Shown one piece after another: positions 1-14,571 of a stretch of 64,000 nucleotides of DNA. Source of the stretch: Deltaproteobacteria bacterium (GTDB taxonomy: Bacteria; Myxococcota_A; UBA796; GCA-2862545). Position 1 is the stretch's first letter. Every line of letters begins with the position of its first letter. Below the pieces are notes generated by a model. It searched no databases and had not been told where the DNA came from. It saw only the letters and a program-made list of their open reading frames with translations. The stretch covers positions 1 through 64,000 of the forward strand of contig JAFGVK010000097.1 in the NCBI GenBank assembly GCA_016938035.1, in the 5' to 3' direction. The position numbers and the translations under genes were made by a program.

Positions 1-1267
1 GCCTGCCCGCTGGGGGCGGGATCCTGGCGGGCGATCTCGCCGCGAGGTTGTGGGGCGGGGTGGTTCGCGGACCCCTTCGGCCCTCCGCGGGCCTGCCAGG
101 ACGCGCGCCCTCGCGCCCCGTGTGCTCCGGCGGTTGGAGGTGGTAGGGCTGGGATCGCGTCCACGCCAGGGGTCCACGCGGCGCGCGACCTGCGGCGGGT
201 GTGCGGGGGCGGCTGGTTCGCGTCGCCGCGGGTGGAGCGCCGCGGGGCGGCGTGCATCGGGGGGGGGAGGGAGCGGCCACATCACCGTTCAACCAGCCTG
301 CGGCGGAACAAGTGAGGTCCCCGGGGGGCGGGTGTGCTCCACCGTGTGGAGCGCTGTGGCACACCGGCTGCTTGGGCACGAGCCCACAAGGACCGGCCAA
401 CGCCTACACCCGTCGCAGCTACGGCGAGCCGGTGGGGACGACCCTCCGGCAGGCCCCCTGTATGCCTGACCGGGCTGAGAAGCACACCCCTGCCAGGAAA
501 TCCGGTCCGAGCGAATATAGTCGTGGACACACCCGCTCGCCCAGGGCATAGCATGCCCCAGCGCTCGGTGCGGAGCAGGAGGCGTGCGTCGACAACGGTG
601 GTTCGTTCGTTTTGCCACCCTGCCGCGACGCTCCACGGGCGTGGCGCGGGTTGCTGATCCCGAGCCGATCGGTCGCGATATCTGCAACATCGTTCATAGA
701 AAGGGACCTACGGTGTGAATCGACGGCTGCCTTGAGCAGGGGGCGGACGCATGGCTCGGAGGTCCTGCCTGCGTGCTTTCTACTCAGAGCGCGGCGTGCC
801 CTCCGCGCACCTGCCACCTGGACGGGATCCCGTGGCCCCCCAGCCCACGCGGCGGACATCCTCGGCACCCGCCAGGGCCCGCGCCCTGGGCTCCGCGAGA
901 TCGCCCAGCGAGGATCCCCGCTAGGAGCCCGTCACCGCCCACACCAACATGGGAATACGTTCCCCGCGGCGCGCTCATCTCCTACCGTTGGGGTGGTGAT
1001 GCGCTCGGAGAGGCAGGTGGAGGGACACACCGCAGATACGCCGTAGGCCGCACGCAGCACCCGCCGCTCCCCCCTTGGGGCGGCGTCGCACTTCTCCTGG
1101 GACGGGTGGGCCTGCCTCGGCGGACGCGCCACCCGGGTCCGAAGGACCGTGTCCTCCACGATCGCGGGAGACAATCTTGGAAGTTCCTGCCCCTGCAAGC
1201 CCGAGCCGCCGCCGAGGAGGCGACGCTCCCTGGCGGCTCCCTCTGCCTGAAAGTCCGGGCATCCCCC
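1..1267. other. Gene-free region with one family B repeat
   Basis: I see no convincing gene in the first 1.27 kb. Open frames exist on both strands but they lack ribosome binding sites, recognisable domains and sensible composition, and they read through each other. The only organised signal is an inverted copy of intergenic repeat family B near 494-767. The left window edge may cut a gene whose 3' end I cannot see. Confidence 0.6.
494..767 (-). repeat. Intergenic repeat family B, copy B1
   Basis: Read on the minus strand this 274 bp segment matches three plus-strand segments at 4429, 6661 and 14288. Shared blocks in order are an AGCCGTCGATTCAC-like block, a GACCGATCGGCTCGGG block, a GCGCTGGG...ATGC block and a CCACGA...GCTCGGAC block. 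Its two ends are imperfect inverted repeats: CAGGAAATCCGGTCC at one end and CAGGACCTCCGAGCC, read inward, at the other. It is the only copy in reverse orientation. No protein frame is kept across copies. Confidence 0.75.
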
Positions 1268-2200
1268 TCACACTCGTGGGATCACAGGATGGGGTGCGAT
1301 CTCGGAGGCGATGGATCCGTCGACAAGCTCGAACCGGGCCCCACGGCCCTCTGCGCGCGCCAGCACCAGGTTCTCCTTGGCCCGGTCGATGTGCGCCGCT
1401 GTGATCTCTCCGGTGACGCCCAGGTGATCGACCACCTCCGCCGCCAGCGCGTTCGTCAGCCACGGCTGACCCTGCGTGTAATAGAACACTCGCTCCAGCG
1501 CCCCCTCCGAGAAGGGCTGCCCCGTCGCCTCCGTGTGCTGAACCAGCAGCTCCCTCACCTGCGCCTCGGTGAACGAGGGCATCCGCGTTGACGCAACGTT
1601 GATGTTGAACGGCGACGACGTCCCCAGACGCCCCTTCCCACCGCTCGCCATCCTGTAGTCCCGAACGTCTCGGAGACCGCACAGGATCACCGCGTGCGGG
1701 GCCCGGGTCGCGTACGAAGCCCGGAGCTGCCGCAGCACCGTGCGCAGGCCGTCGTCTCGAAGGGCGTCGATCTCGTCGAAGAAGAGCACCACTGGCTTGG
1801 GGCAGGACCTGCACCACGCGCGAAGGTTGGAGGACAGCTGAACACCGACCGGCGCGCTTACAACAGGCGGCGGCCGCAGCGCCTCGGGGAGGTCGTCCTC
1901 GGCGGTCATCGCGATCTGCCGCAGCAGCGCCCCCTCCACCTCACCCACGTCGTCCGAGACCGCCTCCCCTGCCTCGCAGGAGAATAACGGCGCGGCAAAG
2001 CGCCCCTCCTCCGTCAGCGCCTTCGCCAGGGCCCGAAGGGTCGGCGTCTTCCCCGTCTGACGCGGCGCGTGGAGCACGAAGCAGCCCTGCCAATCGATCA
2101 GCGCGATGGCCTCCGGGAAGCGCGCCAGCGGGTCGATCCCATAGTGACGCACTGGATCACAGGGGCCAGCGGTGTTGAAGAAGCGGGGTGTTGTCGTCAT
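1268..2200 (-). CDS. AAA-like P-loop ATPase, possibly C-terminally shortened
   Basis: A 310-residue ATP-binding protein. The start at 2200 is chosen because GGGGAGG lies just upstream of ATG and the protein then opens MTTTPRFFNTAGP, typical of this family. A Walker A motif (APRQTGKT) sits near residue 45, Walker B (VVLFFDEIDAL) near residue 140, and an arginine-rich sensor region follows. The family, annotated as AAA-like or ATP-binding protein in Myxococcota and relatives, is as I recall usually longer, with a further C-terminal domain after the ITAAHIDRAKE helix. Here the protein ends about 35 residues after that helix, so it may be truncated. It is divergent from the exported caspase/FGE gene, about 195 bp away. 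Substrate and partner are unknown, and no signal peptide is seen. Confidence 0.8.
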   Translation of the reverse strand: MTTTPRFFNTAGPCDPVRHYGIDPLARFPEAIALIDWQGCFVLHAPRQTGKTPTLRALAKALTEEGRFAAPLFSCEAGEAVSDDVGEVEGALLRQIAMTAEDDLPEALRPPPVVSAPVGVQLSSNLRAWCRSCPKPVVLFFDEIDALRDDGLRTVLRQLRASYATRAPHAVILCGLRDVRDYRMASGGKGRLGTSSPFNINVASTRMPSFTEAQVRELLVQHTEATGQPFSEGALERVFYYTQGQPWLTNALAAEVVDHLGVTGEITAAHIDRAKENLVLARAEGRGARFELVDGSIASEIAPHPVIPRV

Positions 2201-2394
2201 GGGCCTCCCCAAACCCCGCGCCTCGGACGGCGGGACCGGCGCGCTCGCGACGCCCGCAGCAGCCGGATGGGCAGGGGGCACGGCCACACCCCTGAGGATC
2301 CCCTCCCACCGGCGACCGACGTACCGAGGACATGCGGCTCACCGCCCCCTGAGGTAAACAGGATCTGCAGCGAGCGCAGCGCGTGGAGGTCGAG

Positions 2395-4428
2395 ATGTGG
2401 AGCCTGCTCTGGGGTCTAGGTGTAGGGGCGGTGGCGCTGGGCGCGGAGTGGCCCGACGTGACCGCAGGTCTACCGCAGACGGCGGAGGGCGCTGGTGACG
2501 CGGCGGTGATCGTGGGTCTCAGCGACTACGTGTTTGCGCCAGACGTCCCGGGGGCGCTGGAGAACGCGAGCGACTGGCGGCGCTACCTGGCGAGCCGTGG
2601 GGTCCCGCTGGCGAGTATCCACCTGCTGGCGAACGGCGCGGCGACGCGGGAGGCGATGCTGGACGAGGCGGAGTGGGCGGCGGAGCGGGTGCGTCCTGGG
2701 GGCAGGGTCTGGTTCGTGTACATCGGGCACGGCGCGCCCTCTGAGGACGGTCGCGACGGGGTGTTCGTCGGCGCAGACACCCAGGGCACCGCCCGATCTC
2801 TGTACGCGCGGGGGGTGCGTCAGGGGGAATTGCAGTCGATCCTGTCCGCTGGGCCGCAGGCCGACACGGTGATGCTCCTGGACGCGTGCTTCTCTGGGAA
2901 GACCTCGGCGGAGGGGACGCTGGTAAGGGGACTCCAGCCGCTCATCCCCACCGCAGCCACGGCGACAGGCGGGGCGCTGGTGCTGTCTGCGGGCCGCTCC
3001 GACCAATTCGCCGGTCCGCTGCCCGGGCTGGACCGTCCAGCCTTCTCCTACCTGGCGCTTGGGGCGCTGACCGGGTGGGGGGACGCGGATGGCGACGGGG
3101 AGGTGACGGCGGGTGAGGCGGTGGACTACGCATCAGGCGCCCTGTCGGTGCTGGTGACGGACCGGGTGCAGCAGCCGCAGCTGTCCGGAGGGGCGCGCGC
3201 GCGGGTGCTGGGTGGCGGTTCTCGCGGGGGGCCGGACCTGCTGGCGATGGCAGAGTCGCTGCAAGGGCGCGGTCCGGCGGAGTCGGTGGTGACGCTGGAC
3301 CAGCACCCCAGTGATCTCGGCGATCTGGAGGCACGCATACGCGAGCAGCGGTGCCGCGCTGCGGCGAGCGCCGAGGTGGTGCGTCAACGCGACGCGGGCG
3401 TGGGCGCGGCGGTTGCGGCGCGTGAGGCCGCGCTGACGGCGGAGTGGATTAGGCTGAGGGCGGTGGCCTCCGAGTGCGGCCGCCTGGAGGACGGGGACCT
3501 GCGGGGCTCCTGTCGCGCGGAGGTGCTGGGCTTCAGGGAGCGGCTGACAGGGGAGGAGGTGCGCGTGAGCGCGAGCGCGCTGGAGGTAGCCACGGCCTGC
3601 GGGCGGCGCCACGGCCTGGCGGAGGGCGCCGAGGTACCTGTGGGTGAGGGCGTCCGAGAGGAGGTGGACAGGTTCCTGTCGAGATACCGAGAGGGGAGCT
3701 GGTGGGTGGACGAGCCGGGCGACATGGCGGGCGCTGACGGTCGACAGCTCCAGAGCCCCGTGCTGGGCACGCTGCGGTGGATCCCCGCGGGGATCTTCGA
3801 GATGGGTTCACCGGAGGGAGAGGCCGGACGGGACGACGACGAGGATCAGCACGAGGTGCGGCTTCGGGCTGGGTACTGGATGATGGAGAGCGAGGTCACG
3901 CAGCGGATGTGGACCGAGGTGATGGGGAGCAGCCCGGCCTATTTCACGACCTGCGGCACGGAGTGCCCGGTGGAGACCGTGTCGTGGGAGGACGCCGCCG
4001 CGTTCGCGCGTCGTGTGTCTGCGAGGGAGGGGGTGCCCTATCGGCTCCCCACCGAGGCGGAGTGGGAGTACGCTGCGCGGGGAGGAGAGGACCACCGCTA
4101 CGCGGGGGACGGGGAGCTCGCGGCCGTGGGGTGGGTCGGGAGCGGCTCGGCGGGCACCACCCATCGGGTGTGCACCAAGCGCCGCAACGGCTACGGCCTG
4201 TGCGACATGAGCGGGAACGTGTGGGAGTGGGTGATCGACTGGGAGGGGTACTACGGCGATGACCTAGTGACGGATCCAGAGGGGCCCGCAGCGGGCACCC
4301 GCAGGGTCTACCGCGGCGGAGGCTGGAACGACGACCCGCGGAAGGCGCGGGTGGCCCACAGGGGCAGCGGCCCACCGGGCGACCGCGACATCGACCTCGG
4401 CTTCCGCCTGGTGAGGACGAGCAACTGA
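2395..4428 (+). CDS. Exported caspase-like protein fused to FGE-sulfatase domain
   Basis: A 677-residue protein. ATG at 2395 has GGAGG five bases upstream and gives a signal peptide (MWSLLWGLGVGAVALGA). Residues about 35-260 are a caspase/metacaspase (C14) fold with the catalytic pair His112 (YIGHGAP) and Cys165 (LLDACFSG). An EF-hand-like GDADGDGEVTAGE loop follows at 229-241, then a charged helical segment to about 435. Residues 455-677 form a formylglycine-generating-enzyme-like domain with RLPTEAEWEYAARGG, CDMSGNVWEW, YRGGGWNDD and LGFRLVR. The terminal Cys of true FGE (LGFRC) is absent, so FGE catalysis is unlikely and the domain is probably a binding or scaffold module. Export suggests periplasmic or surface action. 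A family B repeat begins at the base after the stop codon. Confidence 0.9.
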   Translation: MWSLLWGLGVGAVALGAEWPDVTAGLPQTAEGAGDAAVIVGLSDYVFAPDVPGALENASDWRRYLASRGVPLASIHLLANGAATREAMLDEAEWAAERVRPGGRVWFVYIGHGAPSEDGRDGVFVGADTQGTARSLYARGVRQGELQSILSAGPQADTVMLLDACFSGKTSAEGTLVRGLQPLIPTAATATGGALVLSAGRSDQFAGPLPGLDRPAFSYLALGALTGWGDADGDGEVTAGEAVDYASGALSVLVTDRVQQPQLSGGARARVLGGGSRGGPDLLAMAESLQGRGPAESVVTLDQHPSDLGDLEARIREQRCRAAASAEVVRQRDAGVGAAVAAREAALTAEWIRLRAVASECGRLEDGDLRGSCRAEVLGFRERLTGEEVRVSASALEVATACGRRHGLAEGAEVPVGEGVREEVDRFLSRYREGSWWVDEPGDMAGADGRQLQSPVLGTLRWIPAGIFEMGSPEGEAGRDDDEDQHEVRLRAGYWMMESEVTQRMWTEVMGSSPAYFTTCGTECPVETVSWEDAAAFARRVSAREGVPYRLPTEAEWEYAARGGEDHRYAGDGELAAVGWVGSGSAGTTHRVCTKRRNGYGLCDMSGNVWEWVIDWEGYYGDDLVTDPEGPAAGTRRVYRGGGWNDDPRKARVAHRGSGPPGDRDIDLGFRLVRTSN

Positions 4429-4712
4429 CAGGAGATCCGGCCCATGCGGCCGTCCATTGCTCATAACGGCCGTCGATTCACACAGATGATCCTGTGCTAT
4501 GGACGACGTCTCGATAATCGTGACCGATCGGCTCGGGTTCACCGGCCCCCTGCAGCCCGGGCCGCGCCTGTGGAAGGTCGCGGCACGGCACAAACACGAA
4601 CGAACCAACGTTATCTGCGCGAGCCTCGCTCTCCGCGCCGGGCGCTGGGTCATGCCGAGCCTCGGACAAGGGGGTGGTTCCACGACGTTGTGCGTTCGGA
4701 CCTGAGCTCCTG
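4429..4712 (+). repeat. Intergenic repeat family B, copy B2
   Basis: A 284 bp copy that starts on the base after the TGA of the caspase/FGE gene. The ends read CAGGAGATCCGGCCC and, inward from the right, CAGGAGCTCAGGTCC, an imperfect terminal inverted repeat. The core GTGACCGATCGGCTCGGG and the block GTGGTTCCACGACGTTGTGCG are nearly identical to copy B3. A frame starting at 4499 gives a short peptide, but it is not kept in other copies. Confidence 0.8.
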
Positions 4713-5405: not shown

Positions 5406-6071
5406 CTACAGGCGGGTGCCCCGCACGCAGCGGGTCATCATGTCGCCGTTCCCCGGGTTGAACGAGTCCACCGTGGCCTGGTAGTACTGCACGTACCACT
5501 GCCCGCTCTGCGCGTCCGCCACCGCGGTGGAGGTCCAGAAGCCGTAGAGGCCGCCGAGCAGGGTGCCGTGGAGCTCCGAGGGCCAGTAGAAGCCCTCTGG
5601 GGCGGGCCCCTCGCCCTCGGCGCAGCCGTCGTAGCAGGTCTGGCTATAGCAGGACCCCGGCCCTACCTCCACGCAGCCACCCTGGTCATCGACGGTGCAG
5701 GCGCCCCCCAACTCGGTGGCGGCGCAGCCGCGCAGCAGGCTGCGGGCCTCCCCCACGGTGGGCAGCCGCCAGTCGTCGTGCCCGTCCAGCACCAGATCCT
5801 CACAATAGGCGATCGCCACCGGGAGCATCATGGTCTCGGAGAGGTAGGGGTCCTGCCAGGTGAGGCCGGAGGCGCTGTCGGTCCAGACGCTGGTGTCGGT
5901 GTCGGTGTCCGTGTCCGTGTCGGTGTCCGTGTCCGTGTCCGTGTCCGTGTCCGTGTCGGTGTCGGTGTCGGTATCGGTGTCCGACGAGGAGGTGTCCTTC
6001 TCGGTGTTGTCCGAGCCGCACCCGGGGGAAAGGGACGCGACAGCCAACAGTGCGAGCGAGCGAAACAACAT
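5406..6071 (-). CDS. Lipoprotein with (Asp-Thr)n linker and DUF1566 (Lcl C-terminal) domain
   Basis: A 221-residue secreted lipoprotein. ATG at 6071 has GGAGG upstream and gives a signal peptide ending SLSPGC, a lipobox-like site. An Asp-Thr dipeptide repeat of about 15 units follows, encoded by a 6-bp tandem repeat that probably forms a flexible surface linker. The remainder matches the DUF1566/Lcl C-terminal domain: SGLTWQDP, DGHDDWRLPTVGEARSLL, FWTSTAVADAQSGQWYV and a final MTRCVRG. Several Cys residues in the middle suggest disulfides. Domains of this type occur in exported proteins with C-type-lectin or FGE-like folds. The ligand is unknown, and the gene appears to stand alone. Confidence 0.85.
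   Translation of the reverse strand: MLFRSLALLAVASLSPGCGSDNTEKDTSSSDTDTDTDTDTDTDTDTDTDTDTDTDTDTDTSVWTDSASGLTWQDPYLSETMMLPVAIAYCEDLVLDGHDDWRLPTVGEARSLLRGCAATELGGACTVDDQGGCVEVGPGSCYSQTCYDGCAEGEGPAPEGFYWPSELHGTLLGGLYGFWTSTAVADAQSGQWYVQYYQATVDSFNPGNGDMMTRCVRGTRL
5893..5982 (-). repeat. 6-bp coding microsatellite, (Asp-Thr)n
   Basis: About fifteen tandem units of the type GTGTCC/GTGTCG read on the plus strand, with one GTATCG unit near the end. They encode an Asp-Thr run in the lipoprotein and are in frame, so changes in unit number would alter linker length without a frameshift. Confidence 0.9.
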
Positions 6072-6195
6072 GGGGGCCTCCAAGTCTCTGTGATGCGGAA
6101 CCGAATAACGGGCTGCGGCCCGCGGTGTCGTACTTTGTGGGGGCCGCGCCCCCCGAGGGGCGTGCTCCTCGGGGGCGCGGCCCCCGAGCGGAGGC

Positions 6196-6420
6196 GACGC
6201 CACGGGTCAATCAGCCGGACCGGCTCACAGGAGGGGCTTCATCATTCCAGAGGAATCATCCGATGAAGTTGCTCGTCGAATCTTCCAGACTGCAAACGGG
6301 CGCCGAGTCGCTAGGCAAATCGGCGTGCAACCGCCGTTCCGCAGGGAGGAAGCGCACTTTTCTACGCGACGAGCGTAGCAACAAGGACACGCGTCGAGAG
6401 GCCAGCGGATCGGCGCCGGG
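6196..6420 (+). repeat. Intergenic repeat family A, copy A1
   Basis: About 225 bp, matching segments at 13944, 17791, 29926 and 30214. Shared blocks are GGTCNATCAGCCGGAC near the start, CGATGAAGTTGCTCGTCGAA, a CAAACGGGCGCCG block, an AGGGAGGAAGCG block, and GACGAGCG...AACAAGGACACGCGTCGAGAGGCCAGCG at the end. A local hairpin, ATTCC-AGA-GGAAT, is enclosed by CTTCATC...GATGAAG near 6237-6268. The ends are only weakly complementary in this copy. It is followed 240 bp later by family B copy B4. Confidence 0.8.
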
Positions 6421-6660
6421 GGCGACGTTCGGGGTAGCCACCCCTGCCAGGAGGCGCCTGGAGGTGCGGAGCGCCGCGCGCGGGACCACCGCGAGCGCCC
6501 ACCCCCTGGGCCCCTCGCGGATCACCGGGGCCGCGCCCGGCTGGCTCGCGAGGACGCCCGGCGGGGGAGCCCCTCCGGGGCCCTGTGGGGCACCGCGAGG
6601 CCACCCCACCCTCCCCGATCCGCGAGGCGCCTCAGCGCGCCGCCGACGCCGGCCTTCCGA

Positions 6661-6928
6661 CAGGACATCCGGCCGCCGCGTTCGCGAAGACCGTCGCTTC
6701 GCGCGTCCGTTTCGGCGCGATGAACCCCGGCGCGCCAGTCACCACCGACCGACCAGGGCTCAGCAGCCCGTCCAAGTCCGCGCCCGGGGAGCGTCGCGGC
6801 AGGCCGGCAAAACGAACCAACCCACATTCTCGGACCAGGCCTCGCTCGCCACACCGGGCGGGCGGCAGTCCCGAGCCATGGGCGAACCAGGGATTCCACG
6901 ATGTTGCGTGCTCGGACTTCACTTCGGG
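6661..6928 (+). repeat. Intergenic repeat family B, copy B4 (most diverged)
   Basis: About 268 bp. It begins CAGGACATCCGG and keeps the GACCGACCAGGGCTC core (CCGATCGGCTCGG in other copies), GGAGCGTCGCGGCAGG as in B1, and a TTCCACGATGTTGCGTGCTCGGAC block near the right end. Terminal complementarity is poor in this copy. It ends about 65 bp from the 3' end of the transglutaminase gene. Confidence 0.65.
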
Positions 6929-8711: not shown

Positions 8712-9565
8712 CGACGGGGCGCCGAGGCGAGGGCGGTGAGCAGGTGCCGCAGCCAGGCCTCACCCCGCTGGGGTGGGAGCCGCTCATCGCCCAGGATCAG
8801 CCCCACCGCCTGCCCCAGCTCCGCGGCGTCGAGCAGGGCGCCGGCGGCCTCAGAGAGGGCGCGCTCCCACGCCTCACCCTCCAGCGCCTCCACCACCACC
8901 CACGCCTGCTCCCCCCGCTCCTCCCCCCGCATCCCCACCCAGGGGCGCCCGGTGCGCGCGGTGGCCGGCCAGTGGATCCGGCTCACCGGGTCGCCCTCCC
9001 GATAGGGGCGCAGGCCCTCCAAGTCGCCCAGGCCGCGCCCGTGGGGGCTGGTGCCCTCGCCCTCGCCGGTGCCGCCACCGGGGGAGCCGCGCAGCGGCGC
9101 CGGGTACACCACGACCTCCGCCGCCTGGTCCACGACCCGCTGGTGGACGCAGAGCCCCAGGGGCCCCTGGCTGCGGAGCGCGACCTTGCCCAGCACGCCG
9201 CGCCCCCTGCGGCCCCAGCGCCAGGCGGTGCCCTGGGTCCTGCGCTCCCCCGGACCCAGGGCACGCAGCCGCGCCTCGCCCTCGGCACCGTCCAGCTCCA
9301 CCACCTCCACCCGCCCCACCGCGAGGCGCCCCGCGACCAGGGCGAAGCTCCCCTGCGCCTCACGCCCCGCGTAGACCTCCTCCGGTAGGGCGCGCGACAG
9401 GCTCAGACCCGCCAGGGACAGGGGCCCCACGGTGAGCTGCACCGCCCAGGCCGAGAGGATCAGCGCCAGCAGCCCGTAGAGCGTGTTGGCCCCGGTAGCC
9501 CACGCACCCAGCGCCAGGGCGAGCGCCGCCCCGAGGGTCCACCACCCGTGCGGAGTGATCCGCAT
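8708..9565 (-). CDS. DUF58 domain protein
   Basis: A 285-residue protein with two N-terminal membrane helices (about residues 9-46), an exported-looking beta-rich segment, and the DUF58 signature LRPYREGDPVSRIHWPATA near 185-203, followed by a vWA-like remnant fold. DUF58 proteins act with MoxR ATPases and are thought to interact with metal-binding vWA or transglutaminase partners. The exact biochemistry is unknown. ATG follows the moxR stop with a single base between (TGAGATG), and its own end overlaps the transglutaminase start, so the three are translationally coupled. Confidence 0.9.
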   Translation of the reverse strand: MRITPHGWWTLGAALALALGAWATGANTLYGLLALILSAWAVQLTVGPLSLAGLSLSRALPEEVYAGREAQGSFALVAGRLAVGRVEVVELDGAEGEARLRALGPGERRTQGTAWRWGRRGRGVLGKVALRSQGPLGLCVHQRVVDQAAEVVVYPAPLRGSPGGGTGEGEGTSPHGRGLGDLEGLRPYREGDPVSRIHWPATARTGRPWVGMRGEERGEQAWVVVEALEGEAWERALSEAAGALLDAAELGQAVGLILGDERLPPQRGEAWLRHLLTALASAPRR

Positions 9566-14287: not shown

Positions 14288-14571
14288 GAGGAGATCCGAC
14301 CCACGCGTCCGTACCCTGCTCACGATAGCCGCCGATTCACCATGTAGACACCGCGCTCTGGACGGCGTCGCGATCATCGTGACCGATCGGCTCGGGCTCG
14401 GCAGCCCCTCCCAGCACGCGCCTCGCCCGTGGCGCGTCGCCGCGGGCCGCTATCACGAGTGAATCACTGTTATCGGCGCGTGCCTCGCGCTCCGCGCCGG
14501 GGGCTGGGTCACGCCGAGCCTCGGACAAGGCGGTGGTTCCACGACGTTGTGCGCTCGGACCCGATCTCCGG
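14288..14571 (+). repeat. Intergenic repeat family B, copy B3
   Basis: A 284 bp copy. GGAGATC at 14290-14296 pairs perfectly with GATCTCC at 14563-14569 as a terminal inverted repeat. It shares GTGACCGATCGGCTCGGG, GGCTGGGTCACGCC and GGTGGTTCCACGACGTTGTGCG with copy B2, allowing for single changes. Confidence 0.8.

What the first reader, a model, noticed from the sequence alone, without database searches (positions are those of the whole stretch)
2395..4428. Exported caspase fused to an FGE-like domain
The His112/Cys165 caspase pair is intact and sits behind a signal peptide, while the C-terminal FGE-sulfatase domain lacks the terminal catalytic Cys. Bacterial caspase-like/FGE fusions are usually considered cytoplasmic effectors; an exported version with an EF-hand-like loop between domains suggests calcium-controlled proteolysis outside the cytoplasm.
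Basis: partly seen in the sequence, partly recalled or inferred. Interest (0 to 1): 0.55.

Follow-up and report, generated by a model that had tools for sequence, protein, structure and literature searches.

The report
Exported caspase with retroelement-type binding domain
A bacterium, probably of the Myxococcota, carries a caspase-like protease that is probably exported and is joined to a binding domain of the kind that diversity-generating retroelements rewrite; in a relative the same kind of gene lies inside a complete retroelement of that sort, which hints at secreted, self-diversifying proteases.

Summary
The gene is real: ATG 2395 behind GGAGG, 677 aa, coding-like composition. His112/Cys165 is intact. 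AlphaFold2 (mean pLDDT 86.6, pTM 0.53) gives a metacaspase/MALT1-like fold (residues 29-275), a helical linker and a C-terminal FGE-type C-type-lectin domain (450-677). Export is likely, not proven: a hydrophobic core sits just before the caspase domain in 31 of 33 related proteins. The EF-hand-like loop (230-241) lies inside the caspase domain, not between the domains; its first Asp and last Glu are invariant in 20 of 20.

The 'FGE' part reads best as a ligand-binding domain of diversity-generating retroelement (DGR) type. Its closest solved structure is the DGR variable protein TvpA (Z 34.6; FGE enzymes at most 28.5). In one relative the same exported fusion is the target of a complete DGR (HRDC, bAvd, RT, template; 14 of 15 template/variable differences at template adenines). 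The 12 template-Asn positions are hypervariable among fusions (2.51 against 1.09 bits). No RT or template was found in the window's own, 89% complete genome.

Caspase-FGE fusions, exported bacterial caspases and caspase-type DGR targets are each in print; I found no report of the exported combination.

In passing: a ~284-nt MITE family flanks the gene.

The parts
2385..2389 (+). Shine-Dalgarno-like GGAGG, 5 nt before the ATG
   Evidence: read
2395..4428 (+). caspase - helical linker - FGE/C-type-lectin fusion gene, 677 aa
2395..2445 (+). putative Sec signal peptide (residues 1-17, MWSLLWGLGVGAVALGA|EWPD); no Lys/Arg in the n-region
   Evidence: family alignment; cleavage site by eye
2491..3264 (+). 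caspase domain (about residues 33-290)
   Evidence: NF047832 match 36-248; AF2 and fold search
2728..2730 (+). catalytic His112
2887..2889 (+). catalytic Cys165
3082..3117 (+). EF-hand-like calcium loop, residues 230-241, inside the caspase domain (helix 216-228 / loop / helix 239-253)
3313..3552 (+). long helical linker, residues 307-386 (coiled coil is inferred)
3742..4425 (+). FGE-type C-type-lectin domain, residues 450-677, no catalytic Cys
4303..4413 (+). region equivalent to a DGR variable repeat (residues 637-673)
   Evidence: similarity to VR and TR of L073; site variability
4429..4712 (+). MITE-like 284-nt repeat directly after the stop codon (the stop lies in its 5-bp target duplication); a neighbour, not part of the protein system
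494..767 (-). second copy of the same repeat, inverted, on the far side of the neighbouring ATPase gene; a neighbour

Best explanation
The gene encodes an exported orthocaspase-type cysteine protease carrying its own recognition arm. The N-terminal signal peptide takes it to the periplasm or beyond. The caspase domain has an intact His/Cys dyad and a built-in EF-hand loop that is probably loaded with calcium outside the cytoplasm and stabilises the domain. A long helical linker, perhaps a dimerising coiled coil, leads to an FGE-type C-type-lectin domain that binds a ligand through a surface of 12 hypervariable positions and has no FGE chemistry. The domain belongs to the class that diversity-generating retroelements rewrite; in a relative the same architecture is inside such a cassette. 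In the window's genome no cassette was found, so this copy is most likely a frozen or formerly diversified paralog. I propose that ligand binding (prey, kin, phage or envelope target) brings caspase domains together or to a substrate and switches on cleavage. Shown: domains by sequence and predicted fold, dyad, loop sequence, DGR linkage in a relative, hypervariable sites. Inferred: export, calcium binding, the ligand, activation on binding.
For: Caspase; both dyad residues in 19 of 20 aligned domains (6 of the 20 are from the own genome). Export: 31 of 33 caspase-domain proteins have a hydrophobic core just before the domain, against 16 of 38 coding-like window ORFs, this gene included. A Cys pair (CGTEC in the window) occurs in the lectin domain of the window protein and 9 of 11 other fusions, against 0 of 4 NACHT-type DGR targets. 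Lectin domain: TvpA is the best solved match by sequence and structure (Z 34.6). DGR: in L073 the fusion gene's 3' end (6598-6722) pairs with a template (8768-8892), 88% identical, 14 of 15 differences at template A, beside HRDC, bAvd and RT. Sites: the 12 template-Asn positions average 2.51 bits against 1.09 (25 other VR sites) and 1.21 (181 other FGE sites) in 11 fusions without L073's own gene, 10 of which reach the region (p 2e-5, 7e-7); 3.23 against 1.33 and 1.63 in 47 non-duplicate rows.
Against: No RT (0 hits) and no template in the own genome, which is only 89% complete. Only 1 of the 7 clear TR/VR target pairs in the survey was a caspase; 4 were NACHT types. The n-region has no positive charge and no signal-peptide predictor was run. 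The Cys-pair argument is mixed: two other DGR targets, one of them probably a surface protein, lack that pair (0 of 2), and the window's second Cys pair recurs in only 3 of 11 other fusions. pTM is 0.53, so the mutual placement of the domains is uncertain. No enzyme, calcium or ligand data. Pfam does not recognise this caspase domain. The site test treats related sequences as independent.
Confidence: 0.55

Rival explanations
1. A periplasmic or secreted caspase-like protease whose FGE-like domain is only a static adhesion or scaffold module, as in GldK/PorK; the DGR linkage in one relative is incidental recruitment.
For: No DGR found in the own genome; PorK/GldK, FGE-like proteins of the T9SS ring, match the domain (that they are exported and non-catalytic is recalled); a clear DGR adjoined only 1 of the 12 collected fusions, in stretches that were often short.
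Against: The positions that vary across the family are those a DGR template makes variable; TvpA scores above PorK and the enzymes.
Confidence: 0.25
2. A cytoplasmic conflict-system effector of the known caspase/FGE kind; the N-terminal hydrophobic stretch is a membrane anchor or not functional.
For: Known DGR variable proteins of this sort are mostly predicted cytosolic (PMC7517822 section 7; PMC10907252 passages); uncharged n-region.
Against: h-core ending in Ala immediately before the domain in most of the family; short h-region; Cys pairs in the lectin domain (mixed); one other apparently exported window protein ([18 protein letters not shown]) also has an uncharged n-region.
Confidence: 0.12
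3. A degenerate FGE maturase that works with the protease on sulfatases (the speculation of the 2012 survey).
For: Fold shared with FGE.
Against: Both catalytic Cys absent here; none of the 11 fusions that reach the region keeps the Cys pair (10 have no Cys after the RGG motif, one has a single Cys).
Confidence: 0.03

Closest known systems
Cyanobacterial DGR variable proteins with orthocaspase N-termini (PMC7517822, section 7 and passages read)
   Same: caspase-type protease joined to a C-terminal C-type-lectin domain that a DGR diversifies; paralogs remote from the cassette
   Different: different phylum; most of those are predicted cytosolic (signal peptides or TM segments are reported for some, which ones I did not see); here the caspase follows a probable signal peptide and carries an EF-hand-like loop, in Myxococcota-related MAGs
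TvpA of Treponema denticola (PDB 2y3c)
   Same: closest solved match of the C-terminal domain; FGE-type C-type-lectin DGR variable protein
   Different: single-domain protein (PMC6328139 passages), no protease
Bacterial metacaspase/FGE-sulfatase fusions (PMC3501461, passages read)
   Same: metacaspase and FGE domains in one chain, 33 of 671 sequences
   Different: there the FGE part was taken as a modifying enzyme; export, loop and DGR link of the fusion were not described in the passages read
Thiohalocapsa PB-PSB1 DGR conflict systems (PMC10907252, passages read)
   Same: DGR-diversified sensors with FGE-type domains; one target (DGR 5) predicted exported; a caspase-like CHAT domain in the DGR 2 target
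   Different: STAND/MoxR partners; no exported caspase-lectin fusion in the passages read
Arabidopsis metacaspase 4 and MALT1 paracaspase (PDB 6w8s, 3uo8)
   Same: caspase fold of residues 29-275, Z about 22
   Different: 14-20% identity; eukaryotic

Membership tests
Caspase-type protease (orthocaspase/metacaspase, clan CD) | caspase fold | tested here: met
   AF2 model; metacaspase 4 Z 21.9 over 212 residues, MALT1 Z 21.6 over 214
Caspase-type protease (orthocaspase/metacaspase, clan CD) | His/Cys catalytic dyad | tested here: met
   His112, Cys165; 19 of 20 aligned domains keep both
Caspase-type protease (orthocaspase/metacaspase, clan CD) | proteolytic activity | not testable with these tools
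   no assay
NCBIfam NF047832 caspase, EACC1-associated type | score above the curated cut-off (140 bits) | tested here: not met
   53.7 bits, E 1.9e-14: a relative, not a member
Formylglycine-generating enzyme | catalytic Cys pair in the C-terminal motif | tested here: not met
   no Cys after residue 603
Formylglycine-generating enzyme | FGE fold | tested here: met
   PF03781 E 2.8e-42; FGE enzymes Z up to 28.5
DGR variable protein | C-type-lectin (FGE subtype) domain with hypervariable sites near the C-terminus | tested here: met
DGR variable protein | template repeat differing at adenines, in the same genome | tested here: not met
   none found for the window gene in an 89% complete genome; met for the homolog in L073
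DGR variable protein | DGR reverse transcriptase in the genome | tested here: not met
   0 hits in the own genome, 89% complete
EF-hand | 12-residue loop D-x-D-G-D-G...E between two helices | tested here: met
   DADGDGEVTAGE 230-241; helices 216-228 and 239-253 in the model
EF-hand | calcium binding | not testable with these tools
   no binding data
Sec-exported protein | hydrophobic h-region at the N-terminus | tested here: met
   mean Kyte-Doolittle 1.94 over 11 residues; the same threshold is passed by 16 of 38 window ORFs
Sec-exported protein | small-residue cleavage site | tested here: inconclusive
   LGA|E by eye; the pattern used was too loose to discriminate
Sec-exported protein | positively charged n-region | tested here: not met
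   MWSLLWG

The most novel reading that the evidence does not exclude
Myxococcota carry a family of secreted or periplasmic, calcium-loaded caspases whose lectin arm is (or was) rewritten by diversity-generating retroelements: antibody-like proteases aimed at changing targets on other cells or phages, outside the cytoplasm.
Probability: 0.35. Interest if true: 0.75.

Novelty: new variant of a known kind. Interest (0 to 1): 0.52.

Why it matters
Bacterial caspases and DGR-diversified sensors have mostly been discussed as intracellular death or defence systems. A family in which the protease and the diversified sensor are one exported chain would move that logic outside the cytoplasm and give a compact, testable system: one polypeptide, in one relative a known template, a known set of 12 variable sites, and proteolysis as a read-out of binding. 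It also corrects the usual label of such proteins as sulfatase-modifying enzymes.

Tried and rejected
DGR for the window gene itself: its last 144 nt were searched in the own genome; apart from itself the best of 28 matches at E <= 1 was 74% over 62 nt (C34), which on inspection has no template-like adenine pattern. RT absent. The pair that the script flagged in the window near 52.5 kb (8 mismatches, 6 at A) is a short-distance repeat inside one ORF; rejected by eye. A 49-nt pair in L112 (6 mismatches, 0.67 at T) is too short and weak; not counted.

Remote variable proteins: the L073 template finds only itself and its own VR in its genome at E <= 1e-5. The 12-kb RT stretch of G046 (L118) shares nothing with the three tandem fusions of G046 at E <= 1e-3. 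L107 holds FGE-, RT- and template-like pieces around a recombinase-like ORF (by eye); not counted.

Gene pair as a composite transposon: inverted repeats flank it, but they are copies of a dispersed MITE at 73-74% identity; coincidence is the better reading. Two of the six caspase genes of the genome have a copy within the fetched flanks; with four copies in 64 kb I did not take this as an association, and did not test it.

Partner role of the neighbouring AAA ATPase (1268-2287, minus): only AAA-type Pfam hits and a weak PADLOC hit (E 0.029); no evidence found. Phages, plasmids, viral contigs and Rfam were not searched. L067 and one L082 hit are the two of 33 caspase proteins without the hydrophobic core.

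Method slips mended: the first repeat alignment mixed orientations (13 of 30 copies reversed) and is superseded. The cleavage-site pattern passed 33 of 33 and is not counted. Alignment A2 (used for AF2) held three rows that are parts of genes present in other rows; one search repeats the 50-row test without them. The 11-fusion test has no duplicates. In one search the FGE stretch could not be cut out of both L125 targets and L083, so whole proteins were scanned. The plain PDB sequence search of the whole protein gave no caspase hit at E <= 0.01; a profile of 20 relatives was needed. VIA-align rows are a second look at Foldseek hits only.

Full report
What is there. The window is contig C224 of a draft genome of 5.19 Mb in 246 contigs, 89% complete. 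The nine named loci found by sequence are from Myxococcota (five) or Deltaproteobacteria (three) MAGs and one labelled only proteobacterium; that the window is of the Myxococcota is inferred from this. ORF 2395-4428 codes for 677 residues; ATG 2395 has GGAGG five bases upstream, so the longer GTG start at 2383 in the ORF list is unlikely. Base composition by codon position is coding-like.

Caspase part. NCBIfam NF047832 matches residues 36-248 (E 1.9e-14, below the curated cut-off), PADLOC caspase 37-227 (E 5.1e-8). Pfam Peptidase_C14 is not called for this protein but is for 12 of the 20 aligned domains. A profile of these 20 finds metacaspase structures (4f6o E 1.2e-5). The AlphaFold2 model (alignment of 51 rows, three of them duplicate pieces; mean pLDDT 86.6, pTM 0.53) superposes on metacaspase 4 (Z 21.9, 2.7 A, 212 residues) and MALT1 (Z 21.6, 3.3 A, 214 residues) within residues 29-275. 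His112 and Cys165 are both kept in 19 of 20 aligned domains, six of which are from this genome. The genome holds five further genes with this domain and no FGE match.

The calcium loop. DADGDGEVTAGE (230-241) lies between helices 216-228 and 239-253 of the model, within the caspase domain. Its first Asp and last Glu are invariant in 20 of 20; in one sub-group the loop is four residues longer. The profile weakly matches EF-hand proteins in the PDB (2jnx, E 0.076, not significant). Position and conservation fit a structural calcium site. A 2019 survey mentions EF-hand motifs in seven and FGE domains in eight archaeal orthocaspases (PMC6426788, passages). Calcium binding, and control of activity, are not shown.

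Export. The protein begins MWSLLWGLGVGAVALGA|EWPD. Of 33 distinct caspase-domain proteins from this genome and relatives, 31 have an 11-residue stretch of mean Kyte-Doolittle hydropathy 1.8 or more just before the domain; among 38 coding-like window ORFs, 16 have one in their first 32 residues, this gene included, so the stretch alone is a weak sign and its constant place in the family is the stronger one. In the fusion alignment it mostly ends in Ala before a common WPDLS-like start. Against export: no basic residue in the n-region; one other apparently exported window protein shares that trait ([14 protein letters not shown]). The lectin domain's four cysteines form two close pairs, 520/524 and 593/603. 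The first pair recurs in 9 of 11 other fusions and in 0 of 4 NACHT-type DGR targets, but also in 0 of 2 other DGR targets (L105, L106); the second recurs in 3 of 11 other fusions and in L105 and L106. This is mixed support.

The C-terminal domain. Pfam FGE-sulfatase 462-674 (E 2.8e-42). No Cys follows residue 603; of 12 fusions one is cut by its contig end, and none of the other 11 has the Cys pair. By sequence (E 1.2e-33) and by structure (Z 34.6, 1.5 A, 223 residues) the best match is TvpA, the DGR variable protein of Treponema denticola, ahead of PvdO (31.7) and FGE enzymes (28.5 and lower). The literature treats FGE-subtype lectin folds as a scaffold of several DGR variable proteins and finds FGE chemistry unlikely there (PMC6328139, passages).

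The retroelement. In one, G048 (locus L073), the gene is followed by an HRDC protein, a bAvd protein and a reverse transcriptase (PF00570 E 5.5e-20, PF22296 E 6.7e-15, PF00078 E 8.1e-10), then a 125-nt template 88% identical to the gene's 3' end, 14 of the 15 differences at template adenines. The template reads RVNRGGSWNNNPRNARVANRNRNTPDNRNNNLGLRLV. This RT has matches at E <= 1e-25 in 7 of 71 genomes of the class. Among 39 stretches scanned and the three new ones, seven clear target/template pairs have 83-95% of their mismatches at template adenines: L073, L105, L106, L108, L124 and two in L125. One of these seven targets is the exported caspase; L108 and both L125 targets and L124 are NACHT proteins, L105 is an FGE protein with a MopE metal-binding motif and Asp/Thr-rich repeats, L106 is cut by its contig end.

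Link to the window gene. Its 3' end matches that template at 71% over 115 nt (E 3e-12). Of the 12 template Asn positions the window keeps one. In the 11 fusions other than L073's own (10 reach the region), those 12 positions average 2.51 bits of entropy, against 1.09 for the 25 other positions of the variable region, 1.21 for 181 other FGE positions and 1.30 for 252 caspase positions (one-sided Mann-Whitney p 2e-5 and 7e-7 for the first two). With 47 non-duplicate rows of caspase and FGE relatives the figures are 3.23, 1.33, 1.63 and 1.71 (p 3e-6 and 9e-8). Rows are related, so the p values are optimistic. The window genome has no RT (0 hits) and no template was found; with 89% completeness this is not final.

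How it most likely works. An exported protease with a recognition arm: the lectin domain binds, the long helices (307-386) transmit or dimerise, the caspase cleaves. The ligand is unknown; prey, kin, phage or envelope targets all fit a myxobacterial life style. Everything after the anatomy is inference.

What is known. Caspase-FGE fusions (33 of 671) and N-terminal helices likely to be signal peptides on bacterial caspases: PMC3501461 (passages). Orthocaspase N-termini on cyanobacterial DGR variable proteins, which are mostly predicted cytosolic: PMC7517822 (passages; section 7). DGR conflict systems, one target with a signal peptide: PMC10907252 (passages). FGS domains in VMAP systems: PMC7159879 (passages). 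Searches for DGR with Myxococcota (0 papers), DGR with Deltaproteobacteria and signal peptide (0), orthocaspase with C-type lectin (1, the cyanobacterial paper), DGR with caspase (11, 10 listed) and caspase with formylglycine-generating and signal peptide (4) showed me no exported caspase-lectin DGR target; I read passages of only some of these, and subscription papers and preprints are not held.

A second thing. The ATPase/caspase gene pair is flanked by inverted copies of a 284-nt repeat. It has terminal inverted repeats (CAGGAGATCCGG...), duplicates a 5-bp target NCNGN (21 of 30 copies match in at least 4 of 5 bases, 12 exactly, against 4.2 on average and at most 10 when partners are shuffled 1000 times), and the copies lie on average 12% from their consensus. 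The consensus has two stop-free frames, open in only 14 and 16 of 30 copies, so coding is not supported. Two BLAST searches gave 41 matches (40 of 162 candidates scored) and 37 (36 of 180 scored); its terminal pattern hits 192 times with up to 3 mismatches against 12 for the reversed control. 0 of 20 other genomes of the family had a match. It is best read as a lineage-specific MITE family, four copies of it in this window. A search for such elements with 'Myxococc' gave three papers, seen as a listing only.

Noticed in passing
window 494-767 (-), 4429-4712 (+), 6662-6923 (+), 14289-14570 (+); loci L009-L038: A 284-nt MITE-like family, on the order of 100 copies in this genome by its terminal repeats (192 pattern hits against 12 control), 5-bp NCNGN target duplications (21 of 30), about 12% divergence from consensus, no match in 20 other genomes of the family. 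By eye some facing ends lie 367-511 nt apart, so size variants may exist; no transposase was sought.
   Followed up: partly
window 1268-2287 (-): AAA ATPase of 339 aa divergent from the caspase gene; its C-terminus looks shorter than that of relatives as I recall them (no call compared lengths).
   Followed up: no
L070 (G046:C354:7000-24000): A cluster of five caspase-domain genes within 17 kb, three of them full caspase-FGE fusions in tandem; no template/variable pair was flagged there.
   Followed up: partly
L108, L124, L125: DGRs whose targets are NACHT-FGE proteins, one with a TIR_2 and one with an EAD1 domain: the known STAND-type conflict architecture in genomes of the same class.
   Followed up: partly
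L105:8618-10150 (-): DGR target with Asp/Thr/Gly-rich repeats, a MopE metal-binding motif and an FGE domain: probably a surface protein.
   Followed up: no
window 5406-6203 (-): Lipoprotein-like Lcl_C protein with a DTDTDT repeat encoded by a GTGTCC/GTGTCG tandem array; an own-genome FGE protein at C202 (L008) has a similar repeat.
   Followed up: no
L064: A relative of the caspase domain that lacks both catalytic residues (GQAS, DASI), a likely pseudo-protease.
   Followed up: no
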